Part shown: piece after piece, positions 3,143 to 15,174 of the stretch | How the letters are laid out: each line of letters begins with the position of its first letter | Position numbering within the stretch: the stretch's first letter is position 1 | NCBI GenBank assembly: GCA_013619035.1 | Contig: JABXKX010000533.1 | Coordinates: 1 to 15,174 of the forward strand | Length of the DNA stretch: 15,174 bases | Origin: Peptostreptococcaceae bacterium | GTDB lineage: Bacteria; Bacillota_A; Clostridia; Peptostreptococcales; Acidaminobacteraceae | Direction: 5' to 3' | The notes under the pieces: generated by a model | Told to the model about the DNA's origin: nothing | The model's database searches: none | The model's input: the letters and a program-made list of their open reading frames with translations, nothing else | Made by a program: the position numbers and the translations under genes

Positions 3143-5431
3143 TTAACTATTCAGTTTACGCCAAATATCTTCTGAACGTATCGGTAATTTAGTCATTCTT
3201 TTACCTAAAGCATTTTTAATCGCATTTGAAAGTGCTGCTGGCGGTGTATCTATACCAATCTCACCAACTGATTTTGCACCAAATGGTCCAGATGGTTCAT
3301 AACTTTTTACAAATGAGACATCCATAGACTTCACTTCCATTCTAGTTGGTACATTATACTTAAAGAATGAGTTGTTTCTATTGGCTCCAAGTTCTGTATA
3401 GTTCACTTCTTCATATAAAGTCATGCCTATACCCTGAAGTAAAGCACCTTCTACCTGTATTCGAGCTAAGTGAGGATTAATAGTTGTTCCACAATCCACA
3501 ACAGCGACATAATTTAAAATGTCCAAATGACCCGTTCTAACATCTATTTCAACTTCAACAGCACCTACCATATAGGGTGGTGGAGATTTTGTACCCACAT
3601 AAGAGCCAGAGCTGACGAGTTGTTCTTGATTTTCAGAATAAAATAATTTAGTCGAAAAGTCTTTTAAAGATATAGTGCTTTCTCCTGAAGTTATATCCTG
3701 TCCATTAAAACAAACATCATCACTCTCAAAATAGATTCTGCCAGCTGCTTCAATTTTTTTGACCATGTTTTCTGCTGCTATTCGAACCGAATGACCAGAA
3801 ACATAAGTAGTACTCGATGCATAAGCACCTGTATCAAAAGGTGTTAAGTCTGTATCCGATGAATAGACAATAATCTTATCAACCGGTACATTTAATGTTT
3901 CAGCGGCCATTTGAGCTAAAATAGTATCTGAACCAGTTCCAATATCGGTTGCACCAACTAACAAATTAAAGAAGCCATCATCGTTTAATTTTAAAATAGC
4001 TGAACCCATATCAATATATGGTATGCCAGAACCTTGCATGGCAATCGCCAAACCAACTCCAGTTACTTTATTAGGATCTTCATTTATATGTTTTAGTTTA
4101 TTGTAGTAATCAATTCTTTTAATACATTCATCTAAACATTCATCTAATTTACATGATTCAATCATCATGGCAGTACCTTCTTGGCCTTCACCCATAATTT
4201 CAAAGATTTCTGAAGTTTCATGTTCCTTCATCATATTCATACGACGTAATTCAATTGGATCCATATTTAATAAGGCTGCCAGTTCATCTATACCAGACTC
4301 CAAAGCAAAATTACCTTGAATCGCACCATAACCACGGTAAGCACCTGCTGGTGTCAGATTTGTATAAACAACATCCCCTCTAAATCCTACTGCATCCACT
4401 TTATTGTAAAGTGGTAGTGTCTTGGATCCCGCTACCATTAAAACGGTTAAAGCATGTTCTCCGTAAGCACCTGTATTAGATAAGATATCCATATCTATTG
4501 CTTTGATGTGACCTTCTTTATCAGATCCTATTTTAACATCAACACGCATAGCATGACGCGTATACGACGCTGTAAACACTTCTTTTCTAGAAAAAATAAG
4601 CTTTGCTGGCATCCCCGTCTTTATGGTTACTAGTGATACGAAAAATTCACCGTGAATCGCTTGCTTACCACCATAACCGCCACCAACTCTTGGTTTAATG
4701 ACTCTGATTTTAGACAAAGGTAAATTTAATGTTTTACCAACGATTCGACGAACATGAAAAGGTGTTTGAGTTGATGTAATCAACGTTAACCTGTCTTGTT
4801 GATCTAAGTAACTCACACAAGAATGCGGTTCTGTCATCGCATGGGCTTGAGCTTGCGTATAATAGCGCCCCTCATAAACCACATCACACGATTCTAATGT
4901 TTTCTTAACATCTCCTATTTCCATTTCATAACCAGCCGCAATATTTCTTTTAGGTTTATGCCCTATTTCAAACATCGAACTGGTGCCATCATTTTCATGA
5001 ATGACAATAGAATTATCCATTGCAGTTTCAAAATCTATAACTGGTTCTAATATATCATAAGAAACTTTTATCTTAGAAATGGCTAAGTCTACAGCTTTTT
5101 CCGAATGACCAGCAACAACTGCCACCGGTTCTCCAATATATCTAACCGTTTTATTTAAGATTCTATGATCATATGGCGAGGGTTCAGGGAAACCTTGTCC
5201 AGCTCTTGAAAAATTAACATCACCGACATTTTCATAAGTCAGTATACATTTGATTTCTGGTAATCCTTCAGCAATATAAGTGTCAATTTTAGTGATATTT
5301 GCATGGGCATGAGGACTTCTCATGACTTTAACAATCAAAGCATCACGAGGTGCAAGATCATCTGTAAAGGCGGGTTTTCCAAGAACTAAACCCATACCAT
5401 CAACTTTAGGGATTCCTTTATTAACAGACAT
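3143..5431 (-). CDS. xdhD: Molybdopterin-binding catalytic subunit, xanthine dehydrogenase family (XdhD-like)
   Basis: A 762-residue molybdenum-cofactor subunit. Visible motifs: the N-terminal a/b hammerhead domain (about 15-135, with VMRSPHAHANI and YIGEPVAVV), the cofactor loop GGGYGGKQ (250-257), PAGAYRGYGAIQGNFALE (361-378), GATDIGTGSDTILAQ in the second half, YASSTTYVSGHSVRIAAEN, and GAKSVGEIG with the catalytic glutamate E724. Length is normal for the family. It should hydroxylate, or run in reverse to dehydroxylate, a purine or related N-heterocycle; the substrate cannot be read from the sequence. Selenium-dependent members carry a labile selenide at molybdenum and not selenocysteine, so absence of an in-frame UGA says nothing about selenium. 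It is the last gene of the operon, followed within 4 bases by a hairpin terminator. TAATG coupling to the [2Fe-2S] gene defines the start. Confidence 0.9.
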   Translation of the reverse strand: MSVNKGIPKVDGMGLVLGKPAFTDDLAPRDALIVKVMRSPHAHANITKIDTYIAEGLPEIKCILTYENVGDVNFSRAGQGFPEPSPYDHRILNKTVRYIGEPVAVVAGHSEKAVDLAISKIKVSYDILEPVIDFETAMDNSIVIHENDGTSSMFEIGHKPKRNIAAGYEMEIGDVKKTLESCDVVYEGRYYTQAQAHAMTEPHSCVSYLDQQDRLTLITSTQTPFHVRRIVGKTLNLPLSKIRVIKPRVGGGYGGKQAIHGEFFVSLVTIKTGMPAKLIFSRKEVFTASYTRHAMRVDVKIGSDKEGHIKAIDMDILSNTGAYGEHALTVLMVAGSKTLPLYNKVDAVGFRGDVVYTNLTPAGAYRGYGAIQGNFALESGIDELAALLNMDPIELRRMNMMKEHETSEIFEIMGEGQEGTAMMIESCKLDECLDECIKRIDYYNKLKHINEDPNKVTGVGLAIAMQGSGIPYIDMGSAILKLNDDGFFNLLVGATDIGTGSDTILAQMAAETLNVPVDKIIVYSSDTDLTPFDTGAYASSTTYVSGHSVRIAAENMVKKIEAAGRIYFESDDVCFNGQDITSGESTISLKDFSTKLFYSENQEQLVSSGSYVGTKSPPPYMVGAVEVEIDVRTGHLDILNYVAVVDCGTTINPHLARIQVEGALLQGIGMTLYEEVNYTELGANRNNSFFKYNVPTRMEVKSMDVSFVKSYEPSGPFGAKSVGEIGIDTPPAALSNAIKNALGKRMTKLPIRSEDIWRKLNS

Positions 5432-5880
5432 TATCTCACCTCCATTAATTTTTTAAGTGCTCTGTGTTGTCCTTCATAACCAGAACATCTACATAGATTT
5501 CCAGCCAAATAATGTTTGATTTCTTCTATGGATGGATGAGTATTTTCTTGCATCAATGCATAAACAGCCATAACATGTCCTGGCGAACAGAAACCGCACT
5601 GCTCTACACCTTCTGCTGTAATCATTTCTCCGATTTTTCTAGCTTCAGTTTGAATGCCTTCCACTGTTGTGATTGGTTTATTATGTGCTCTTACTGTTAA
5701 GTATGAACAGGACGGAACCAAATGTCCATCCACTAAAATACTACAGACGCCACATGAACTGGTGTCACATCCACGTTTTACAGATTTGTAACCTAATTTT
5801 CTAAGAGTATCTAAAAGGTATTCATCAGGATCTGCTGCAAATTTTATATGTGTACCATTAATGATTAGTTTAACTTCCAT
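5431..5880 (-). CDS. [2Fe-2S] iron-sulfur subunit of a molybdenum hydroxylase
   Basis: A 149-residue small subunit of the xanthine dehydrogenase family. The N-terminal plant-ferredoxin-like cluster uses C38, C43, C46 and C58 (GCDTSSCGVC then PSC). The C-terminal helical cluster uses C95, C98, C130 and C132 (EQCGFCSPG and NLCRCSGYEG). All eight cysteines are present. It relays electrons from the molybdenum centre to the FAD subunit. In E. coli XdhD, from memory, the equivalent domain is fused to the N-terminus of the molybdenum subunit; here it is a separate gene, as in XdhC or CoxS-type systems. AAAGGAAGG lies 11 bases upstream inside the FAD-subunit gene. The gene ends with a GGAGGTGAGATAATG junction that provides the ribosome site and start for the molybdenum subunit. 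Confidence 0.93.
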   Translation of the reverse strand: MEVKLIINGTHIKFAADPDEYLLDTLRKLGYKSVKRGCDTSSCGVCSILVDGHLVPSCSYLTVRAHNKPITTVEGIQTEARKIGEMITAEGVEQCGFCSPGHVMAVYALMQENTHPSIEEIKHYLAGNLCRCSGYEGQHRALKKLMEVR

Positions 5881-14953: not shown

Positions 14954-15174
14954 TTTTTATCTCCTTTATATAATCTTCAATAAGATTCAGTGCTGTCGTT
15001 TCACGGTATGCTTTTGTAGACCGTTTATCATCACTTCCATTCATCAAACTTTTATACCCAATAAGTAAACTTGATAGATCTTTATCTTTAATAAATTTTC
15101 TTTCAAGTTCCATATTTCTTATGACCAAATCATTTACAGCACCTATGGTAATTCTTATATCATTAGGTTGATAC
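14943..15174 (-). CDS. C-terminal fragment of a xanthine dehydrogenase-family FAD-binding subunit (partial, runs off the window)
   Basis: The reading frame is open to the right edge of the window and gives 76 C-terminal residues ending in KEIKNEL. An internal TTG or ATG could be mistaken for a start, but the frame continues upstream through YQPNDIRITIGAV, so this is the tail of a larger gene. The segment fits the C-terminal domain of molybdenum-hydroxylase flavin subunits (CO dehydrogenase flavoprotein C-terminal type): an IRITIGAV strand, a helix and loop, then SDDKRSTKAYRETTALNLI, which resembles the family's DxRSTxxYR signature. The same layout (GAYRRALAEALLEDIL) ends the other FAD subunit in this window at 5870-6607, so two such subunits flank the pathway. 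Its last 11 bases overlap the start of the YgeY-like gene, and they contain that gene's AAAGGAGAT ribosome site. In E. coli, xdhABC lies upstream of ygeW, which agrees with this position. Family call fairly firm; exact subunit not determinable. Confidence 0.72.
   Translation of the reverse strand, partial: YQPNDIRITIGAVNDLVIRNMELERKFIKDKDLSSLLIGYKSLMNGSDDKRSTKAYRETTALNLIEDYIKEIKNEL

What the first reader, a model, noticed from the sequence alone, without database searches (positions are those of the whole stretch)
3143..15174. Complete, tightly coupled purine/urate-type catabolic operon in a low-GC, standard-code lineage
At least eleven consecutive minus-strand genes carry the YgeW, YgeY, HyuA, SsnA, PLP-lyase and three-subunit molybdenum-hydroxylase families seen together in the E. 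coli xdh-yge-ygf-ssnA locus and linked to anaerobic purine and uric acid breakdown. Junctions are ATGA (6604, 8867), TAATG (5431, 7800), a one-base gap (11382) or overlaps of 11-17 bases; the largest gap is 8 bases. The complement differs from the E. coli version in several ways, so this may be a variant route that makes purines a carbon, nitrogen and energy source.
Basis: partly seen in the sequence, partly recalled or inferred. Interest (0 to 1): 0.75.

Follow-up and report, generated by a model that had tools for sequence, protein, structure and literature searches.

The report
Variant anaerobic urate/purine breakdown operon
These bacteria carry one tightly packed set of genes that looks able to break purines such as adenine or uric acid down to a simple acid without oxygen, with the usual last enzyme of the known pathway apparently replaced by two others that current naming calls cysteine synthase and threonine synthase.

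Summary
Ten complete minus-strand genes plus the end of an eleventh (3143-15173) form one tightly coupled operon with a terminator-like hairpin. All ten recur in the same order in 4 further genomes, and in a fifth up to its contig end; there a second, complete molybdenum hydroxylase lies upstream. Labels are partly right. YgeY is genuine. SsnA, HyuA, XdhA-C and the carbamoyltransferase miss curated cut-offs but are best read as divergent counterparts of the published reductive urate pathway: XdhA has the XdhD-type glutamate, the reductase is UacX-like rather than YgfK, the carbamoyltransferase is short with YgeW motifs. YgeX is absent. Two other PLP enzymes, one cysteine-synthase-like (PLP466), one threonine-synthase-like, stand in its place. 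The latter is in 13 of 14 PLP466 genomes tested and in none of 11 YgeX genomes tested; one other genome has all three. In the class of an Anaerolineae genome PLP466 is in 94 of 120 genomes, YgeX in 2. I read this as a new variant of a known pathway with the terminal diaminopropionate step reassigned. With both Mo enzymes, hypoxanthine breakdown would be redox-neutral to pyruvate (inference). No activity has been measured.

The parts
14943..15173 (-). C-terminal part of the FAD subunit (XdhB2) of a second Mo hydroxylase; runs off the contig
   Evidence: Frame; 40-51% identical to the xdhB2 gene upstream of ygeY in L001-L005
13739..14953 (-). ygeY: M20-type hydrolase, predicted to remove one ureido group
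   Evidence: NCBIfam TIGR03526 620 bits (cut-off 321.5); 60% identical to E. coli YgeY
12792..13754 (-). Short YgeW-like carbamoyltransferase (320 aa), predicted phosphorolysis of the other ureido group
   Evidence: 32% to E. coli YgeW; KPxSVP, PKxW and LPAD shared with YgeW and absent from ArgI and PyrB; separate clade from long YgeW; best curated model is ornithine carbamoyltransferase, below cut-off
11383..12783 (-). PLP466: cysteine-synthase-like PLP enzyme, 466 aa, predicted to act on diaminopropionate
   Evidence: PF00291; model pLDDT 88.8; CysK, beta-cyanoalanine synthase and CBS fold; no YgeX-level match
10101..11381 (-). hyuA-like cyclic amidohydrolase (hydantoin ring opening)
   Evidence: TIGR02033 212 bits, below cut-off 393; 26% to E. 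coli HyuA
8867..10117 (-). ssnA-like aminohydrolase (ring opening after reduction)
   Evidence: Best model NF005540 SsnA 319 bits, below cut-off 444; 27% to E. coli SsnA, 22% to GuaD
7800..8870 (-). uacX-like reductase: DHODH-fold domain plus two 4Fe-4S clusters (ORF open from 8885)
   Evidence: PF01180 and Fer4; 33% to the DHODH-type gene beside ssnA and ygeX in L098, with shared STHY, TKTIS and ELWSE; the PreA stretch with NFSCP has no counterpart
6604..7800 (-). thrS: threonine-synthase-like PLP enzyme (398 aa; ORF open from 7863)
   Evidence: TIGR00260 183 bits, over cut-off 167; departs from four threonine synthases at conserved positions
5870..6607 (-). xdhB: short FAD subunit (245 aa)
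   Evidence: PF00941; weak match to E. coli YgfM and XdhB
5431..5880 (-). xdhC: 2Fe-2S subunit
   Evidence: PF01799 and PF00111
3143..5431 (-). xdhA: Mo subunit, XdhD-type, predicted urate reductase
   Evidence: 37% to E. coli XdhD (476 bits) against 33% to XdhA (395 bits); XdhD Glu606 = Glu415
3106..3139 (-). Likely intrinsic terminator at the operon's end
   Evidence: Hairpin -18 kcal/mol, z -4.57, followed by T-run; not listed by the consensus scan

Best explanation
The operon encodes a variant of the reductive, oxygen-independent urate/purine degradation pathway. Inferred steps: the upstream Mo hydroxylase oxidises hypoxanthine or xanthine to urate; XdhABC in the window reduces urate to 2,8-dioxopurine (yanthine); UacX reduces the ring; SsnA and HyuA open the two rings to diureidopropionate; YgeY and the short YgeW-like enzyme remove the two ureido groups (the latter yielding carbamoyl phosphate for ATP via a carbamate kinase encoded elsewhere); PLP466 and the threonine-synthase-like enzyme together take over the final step that YgeX performs, turning 2,3-diaminopropionate into pyruvate and ammonia, possibly through aminoacrylate or serine. 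With both Mo enzymes, hypoxanthine to pyruvate releases four electrons and uses four, so the route would be redox-neutral to that point. Shown: gene content, order, conservation, motif matches, co-occurrence. Inferred: every reaction and the division of work between the two PLP enzymes.
For: Every step of the published pathway (PMC12507026) has a candidate here. YgeY passes its curated cut-off. XdhA is nearest XdhD; the Glu606 counterpart is in 9 of 9 window-type XdhA proteins compared and in 0 of 7 XdhA2 proteins. UacX shares a signature with a DHODH-type gene in a cluster with ssnA, ygeX, ygeW and ygeY. Adenine deaminase, MocA-like or RidA genes adjoin relatives of the operon or its parts. 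PLP466+ThrS stand in the YgeX slot: L099/L115 is a YgfK-SsnA-YgeY cluster with PLP466+ThrS; L111 and L114 have thrS-PLP466-ygeY-OTC-carbamate kinase, while L116 has ygeX-hyuA-ygeY-OTC. YgeX is absent over cut-off in all 5 operon genomes and in 15 of 16 PLP466 genomes searched. ThrS-like matches of 350 bits or more are in 13 of 14 PLP466 genomes and 0 of 11 YgeX genomes tested (G056 counts in both). Carbamate kinase is over cut-off in 5 of 5 operon genomes.
Against: SsnA, HyuA, XdhA-C and the carbamoyltransferase fail the curated cut-offs, and the last scores best as ornithine carbamoyltransferase, so substrates could have shifted. The Glu606 segment is missing from the Xdh proteins of the YgeX cluster L098, of G125 and of Athalassotoga, so it does not mark every presumed urate reductase. 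Over the class sample PLP466 and YgeX are not demonstrably exclusive: 7 and 22 of 245, both in one genome, 0.6 expected. One Anaerolineae genome (G009) has YgeX as well as PLP466 and ThrS. G056 has window-type xdh, uacX and ssnA genes but YgeX in the slot, and a PLP466 copy without ThrS. PLP466 lies in apparently unrelated context in L110 and L113 and has none of the six counted purine clusters within the fetched flank in 33 of 80 loci, many cut short. Both YgeX genomes of the Anaerolineae-class sample also have PLP466. No biochemical evidence exists for either PLP enzyme here.
Confidence: 0.7

Rival explanations
1. The pathway is the reductive urate route, but only one of the two PLP enzymes replaces YgeX (an ammonia-lyase recruited from the cysteine synthase family); the other does a side job such as isomer conversion or serine formation.
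For: YgeX is one enzyme acting on both isomers (PMC12507026). L006 carries PLP466-thrS in a hydantoin-type neighbourhood that ends with genuine L-serine ammonia-lyase genes, which hints at serine as an intermediate.
Against: The pair travels together: 13 of 14 PLP466 genomes tested. The serine ammonia-lyase genes were found in 1 of 113 loci searched.
Confidence: 0.4
2. The operon degrades pyrimidines or hydantoins rather than purines: UacX as a dihydropyrimidine dehydrogenase, HyuA as dihydropyrimidinase, then a carbamoyl-cleaving step.
For: UacX and HyuA belong to those superfamilies. L006 has PLP466-thrS near a hydantoinase and a racemase-like gene (named by recall; no NCBIfam match).
Against: Two Mo hydroxylases, XdhD-type Glu415, YgeY, and adenine deaminase next to the operon in L003; UacX lacks the PreA stretch with NFSCP.
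Confidence: 0.1
3. The two PLP enzymes are what annotations call them, cysteine synthase and threonine synthase, and lie in the operon by accident of amino-acid biosynthesis.
For: ThrS passes the TIGR00260 threonine synthase cut-off; several sources name PLP466 relatives cysteine synthase.
Against: Conserved operon position in five genomes and purine-gene context in loci from Thermotogae, Chloroflexota and the class of G002. ThrS-like proteins have GN-A and GDG in all 13 rows where the four threonine synthases shown have GN-T and GNAG. PLP466 is about 150 residues longer than cysteine synthases and matches the cysK model far below cut-off (139 against 351 bits).
Confidence: 0.07

Closest known systems
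Reductive uric acid degradation cluster of E. coli (xdhD, ygfK, ssnA, hyuA, ygeW, yqeA, ygeY, ygeX; PMC12507026)
   Same: Same chain of enzyme kinds; YgeY 60% identical; XdhA closest to XdhD and keeps Glu606
   Different: UacX-like in place of YgfK; separate Fe-S subunit; short YgeW-like enzyme; no YgeX, two other PLP enzymes; second Mo hydroxylase in the same operon
C. difficile-type cluster (UacX, UacY, YgeX; PMC12507026)
   Same: A DHODH-type UacX replaces YgfK
   Different: Carbamoyltransferase in place of UacY; PLP466+ThrS in place of YgeX; own FAD subunit.
Chloroflexota F420-type cluster (PMC12507026)
   Same: In many Anaerolineae loci PLP466, ThrS-like, OTC-like, SsnA-like and often YgeY lie together
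   Different: Carbamate kinase present and, by my reading of sequence starts only, F420 genes and a luciferase-family reductase rather than UacX; rearranged order
Xanthinase (Rabinowitz) purine pathway
   Same: Anaerobic purine fermentation using a Mo hydroxylase (PMC12507026)
   Different: No window gene was recognised as a xanthinase; not searched for specifically

Membership tests
Reductive urate degradation pathway (PMC12507026) | XdhD-type urate reductase with Glu606 | tested here: met
   Glu415 in the window; present in 9 of 9 window-type XdhA proteins, absent from E. coli XdhA and 7 of 7 XdhA2; also absent from Xdh of L098, G125 and Athalassotoga; activity not tested
Reductive urate degradation pathway (PMC12507026) | YgfK or UacX ring reductase | tested here: met
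   UacX-like: DHODH domain plus Fe-S clusters without FAD domain; signature shared with L098, 33% identity
Reductive urate degradation pathway (PMC12507026) | SsnA by curated family cut-off | tested here: not met
   318.8 bits against 444; 283 against 455.5; SsnA is nevertheless the best model
Reductive urate degradation pathway (PMC12507026) | HyuA-type hydantoinase | tested here: inconclusive
   Best model D-hydantoinase 212 bits against cut-off 393
Reductive urate degradation pathway (PMC12507026) | YgeW by curated cut-off (or UacY) | tested here: not met
   179.7/453 and 168.4/500 bits; ornithine carbamoyltransferase scores higher, 263.5/280.9; shares YgeW motifs but forms a separate clade
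Reductive urate degradation pathway (PMC12507026) | YgeY | tested here: met
   620 bits against 321.5
Reductive urate degradation pathway (PMC12507026) | YgeX diaminopropionate ammonia-lyase | tested here: not met
   PLP466 18 bits against 276; none over cut-off in the 5 operon genomes; the window's own genome is not held
Reductive urate degradation pathway (PMC12507026) | Conversion of urate to yanthine and on to pyruvate | not testable with these tools
   Needs assays
Threonine synthase (thrS gene) | TIGR00260 cut-off | tested here: met
   183 bits against 167
Threonine synthase (thrS gene) | GN-T and GNAG stretches seen in the four threonine synthases aligned | tested here: not met
   GN-A and GDG invariant in 13 of 13 rows; their role in phosphate binding is recalled
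Cysteine synthase (PLP466) | cysK curated cut-off | tested here: not met
   139 bits against 351; fold shared

The most novel reading that the evidence does not exclude
PLP466 and the threonine-synthase-like protein form a previously unassigned two-enzyme system for the last step of anaerobic urate breakdown in Clostridia, Thermotogae and many Anaerolineae, and operons with two Mo hydroxylases run a redox-balanced fermentation of adenine/hypoxanthine in which one Mo enzyme makes urate and the other reduces it.
Probability: 0.45. Interest if true: 0.65.

Novelty: new variant of a known kind. Interest (0 to 1): 0.52.

Why it matters
The reductive urate pathway was worked out in 2025 with YgeX as its last enzyme, and its spread was mapped with the broad Pfam family PF00291 standing for YgeX. 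If the pair found here does that step, then in Chloroflexota and some Clostridia the enzyme counted as YgeX in such maps is something else, a large family (7,997 of 8,000 candidate clusters matched) is often misnamed cysteine synthase, and purine fermentation may be common in sediment and subsurface bacteria. It also suggests why two Mo hydroxylases share an operon: together they would need no outside electrons for hypoxanthine. The complete genome of Athalassotoga saccharophila carries a gene of each of the ten kinds, though its xdhA lacks the XdhD-type segment.

Tried and rejected
The window's own genome is not held. I expected strict YgeX/PLP466 exclusion; over the class sample it is not significant, so I rest on ThrS-like against YgeX and on the gene slots. 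I considered calling the carbamoyltransferase YgeW or an ornithine carbamoyltransferase; curated scores reject the first and leave the second just below its cut-off, while motifs favour a YgeW-like role. I considered an OrtB-type thiolase for PLP466 (recalled lead); no such model was among the 19 families listed for it, which is no proof. Serine as an intermediate rests on L006 alone. An aminotransferase and a dehydrogenase beside ygeY in L122 score below cut-off as BhcA and PGDH and may be ordinary serine biosynthesis. A gene in L094 that I took from its sequence start for a purine permease had no NCBIfam match at 1e-20, so I do not use it. The structure search of PLP466 shows only the cysteine synthase/CBS group in its 50 rows; YgeX does not appear, which excludes nothing. 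I hoped the XdhD glutamate would mark urate reductases generally; it does not. The 2025 Nature Microbiology and 2023 Cell papers are not held; supplements could not be read. That no paper describes this pair rests only on the searches. On checking this report I corrected the motif count, the wording on PreA and the Athalassotoga claim; I left the odds as they were.
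Full report
What is there. The window (32-36% GC) holds ten complete minus-strand genes from 14953 to 3143 and the end of an eleventh. The run ends with a hairpin and T-run just behind xdhA, which the consensus scan did not list. Then follow a DUF697 protein and an IGHMBP2-type helicase. In L002 a 64% identical helicase comes directly after xdhA.

Conservation. In L001, L002, L003 and L005 all ten genes follow in window order; in L004 they do so until the contig ends inside xdhB. 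In all five, a second Mo hydroxylase (xdhA2-xdhC2-xdhB2) stands upstream (in L005 with three small genes between it and ygeY), and the window's edge frame is the end of that xdhB2. A MocA-like gene precedes it in L002 and L005 (24-27% to E. coli MocA), a RidA-like gene in L003. Adenine deaminase (TIGR01178 over cut-off) follows in L003.

Identity of the parts. YgeY is genuine. XdhA is closer to E. coli XdhD than to XdhA. Li et al. (PMC12507026: outline and abstract, introduction, first part of the results, discussion and found passages seen; commentary PMC12990295 seen whole) single out XdhD Glu606 as possibly orienting urate for yanthine formation. It is Glu415 here. It is present in 9 of 9 window-type XdhA proteins compared (window, L001, L002, L003, L005, L094-L097), and absent from E. 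coli XdhA and from 7 of 7 XdhA2 proteins. Against its use as a general marker, it is also absent from the Xdh proteins of L098, of G125 (two) and of Athalassotoga. I infer that the window enzyme is the urate reductase and the upstream one an ordinary purine hydroxylase. XdhA2 has GGKE where the window XdhA has GGKQ; that this Glu marks xanthine dehydrogenases is recalled.

I call both UacX-type because Li et al. describe UacX as the DHODH-family protein in that role. In the alignment with E. coli PreA the seven PreA residues with NFSCP have no counterpart. SsnA, HyuA and the XdhA-C subunits are below curated cut-offs. The carbamoyltransferase is 320 aa and 32% identical to YgeW. Its best curated model is ornithine carbamoyltransferase, 263.5 against a cut-off of 280.9, and its best PDB matches are ornithine carbamoyltransferases too. 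Yet it has KPxSVP, PKxW and LPAD. Of the 25 rows that I chose for, 19 have all three motifs, 2 have two (one L078 row, L021 cluster 3) and 4 have none (ArgI, PyrB, the other L078 row, L021 cluster 29). It forms a clade apart from the 383-410 aa YgeW proteins.

The missing YgeX. Neither PLP protein is YgeX. The 16 PLP466 genomes searched contain one YgeX over cut-off, in G009; the five operon genomes contain none. In a class-wide sample around G002, YgeX is over cut-off in 22 of 245 genomes and PLP466 is found in 7 of 245, with G056 holding both; chance alone would give 0.6. In the smaller SsnA sample (118 genomes), 11 genomes have SsnA matches of 290 bits or more. The five PLP466 genomes whose handles fall in that sample (G002, the centre, plus G056, G097, G111, G125) are all among them. 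The other two (G148, G183) have SsnA-like matches of 343-344 bits. So all 7 carry an SsnA-like protein; of the 11, G083 had neither YgeX nor PLP466.

A profile of the threonine-synthase-like protein matches at 350 bits or more in 13 of 14 PLP466 genomes; all 14 had been chosen for PLP466, and four supplied rows to the profile. It does so in 0 of 11 YgeX genomes tested, which are 11 of the 22 found and include G056. Their best match is 312 bits. None of the 13 carries YgeX over cut-off (taking the two class samples as the same draw). Of the 13, 12 have an SsnA-like gene of the window's grade or in the same operon; G006 does not (194 bits). The counterexample known to me is G009, which has YgeX and a locus with both PLP genes.

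Slots. L114: adenine deaminase-thrS-PLP466-ygeY-OTC-carbamate kinase. L111: the same block from thrS on, cut by its contig, with ygeY in two frames. L112: thrS-ygeY-ygeW-PLP466. L115/L099: thrS-PLP466-ygeY-ygfK-guaD-like-ssnA-xdhABC, with ygeW and hyuA nearby. L116: ygeX-hyuA-ygeY-OTC, the same neighbourhood with YgeX, although this genome (G056) has window-type xdh, uacX and ssnA next to it. L110 and L113 are exceptions, with PLP466 among apparently unrelated genes.

The complete genome of Athalassotoga saccharophila (L011, L122, L123) has ygeY-OTC-hyuA-ssnA-uacX, thrS-xdhC-mocA-xdhB and adenine deaminase-xdhA-PLP466-amidohydrolase in three places. G007 has ygeY-OTC-hyuA-uacX-thrS-xdhC-mocA in one run. 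Over the 80 loci, thrS lies in 37, ssnA-like (cluster 2) in 36, OTC-like in 28, ygeY in 21, carbamate kinase in 18, adenine deaminase in 15; 33 have none of six purine clusters counted, and many contigs are short. In the class of G010 (L033, titled Anaerolineae) PLP466 is in 94 of 120 genomes and YgeX in 2 of 120, both with PLP466. Li et al. mapped YgeX with PF00291, to which both PLP proteins here belong.

Redox reading (inference). Hypoxanthine to urate releases four electrons; urate to yanthine and ring reduction use four. With adenine deaminase in front, adenine could be fermented to pyruvate without outside electrons. Xanthine would need two and urate four. Carbamate kinase, needed to win ATP from carbamoyl phosphate, is in 5 of 5 operon genomes though not in the operon.

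Verdict. The pathway is known; the operon is a new variant whose last step uses enzymes that I did not find tied to it in the papers that I could search.

Noticed in passing
Class of G010 (L033, Anaerolineae): The often 'cysteine synthase'-named PLP466 family is in 94 of 120 genomes, with scores falling into groups (about 690-800 bits, about 580-635, and lower or partial); the lower groups may have another function.
   Followed up: partly
L006:7159-20185: In Anaerobacterium chartisolvens a YgeY-family gene, a D-aminoacylase-like gene (by recall), PLP466 and thrS adjoin transporter-like genes, a racemase-like gene, a hydantoinase and L-serine ammonia-lyase subunits: perhaps a ureido-amino-acid pathway ending in serine.
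   Followed up: partly
window:7800-8870: The UacX-like reductase lacks the PreA stretch with NFSCP, which holds the catalytic cysteine of that family (recalled), so its acid catalyst may differ.
   Followed up: partly
L110:9832-11307 and L113:9323-10702: PLP466 copies among apparently unrelated genes; G056 (L113) has a YgeX-type cluster elsewhere and no ThrS-like protein.
   Followed up: partly
L005:4576-6437, L096:6699-8690: Three small genes (membrane protein, XdhC/CoxI-like, nucleotide-binding, all by recall from sequence starts) sit among the operon genes in some relatives, possibly for Mo cofactor maturation.
   Followed up: no
window:131-3024: A DUF697 protein and an IGHMBP2-type helicase follow the operon; in L002 a 64% identical helicase comes directly after xdhA.
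   Followed up: no
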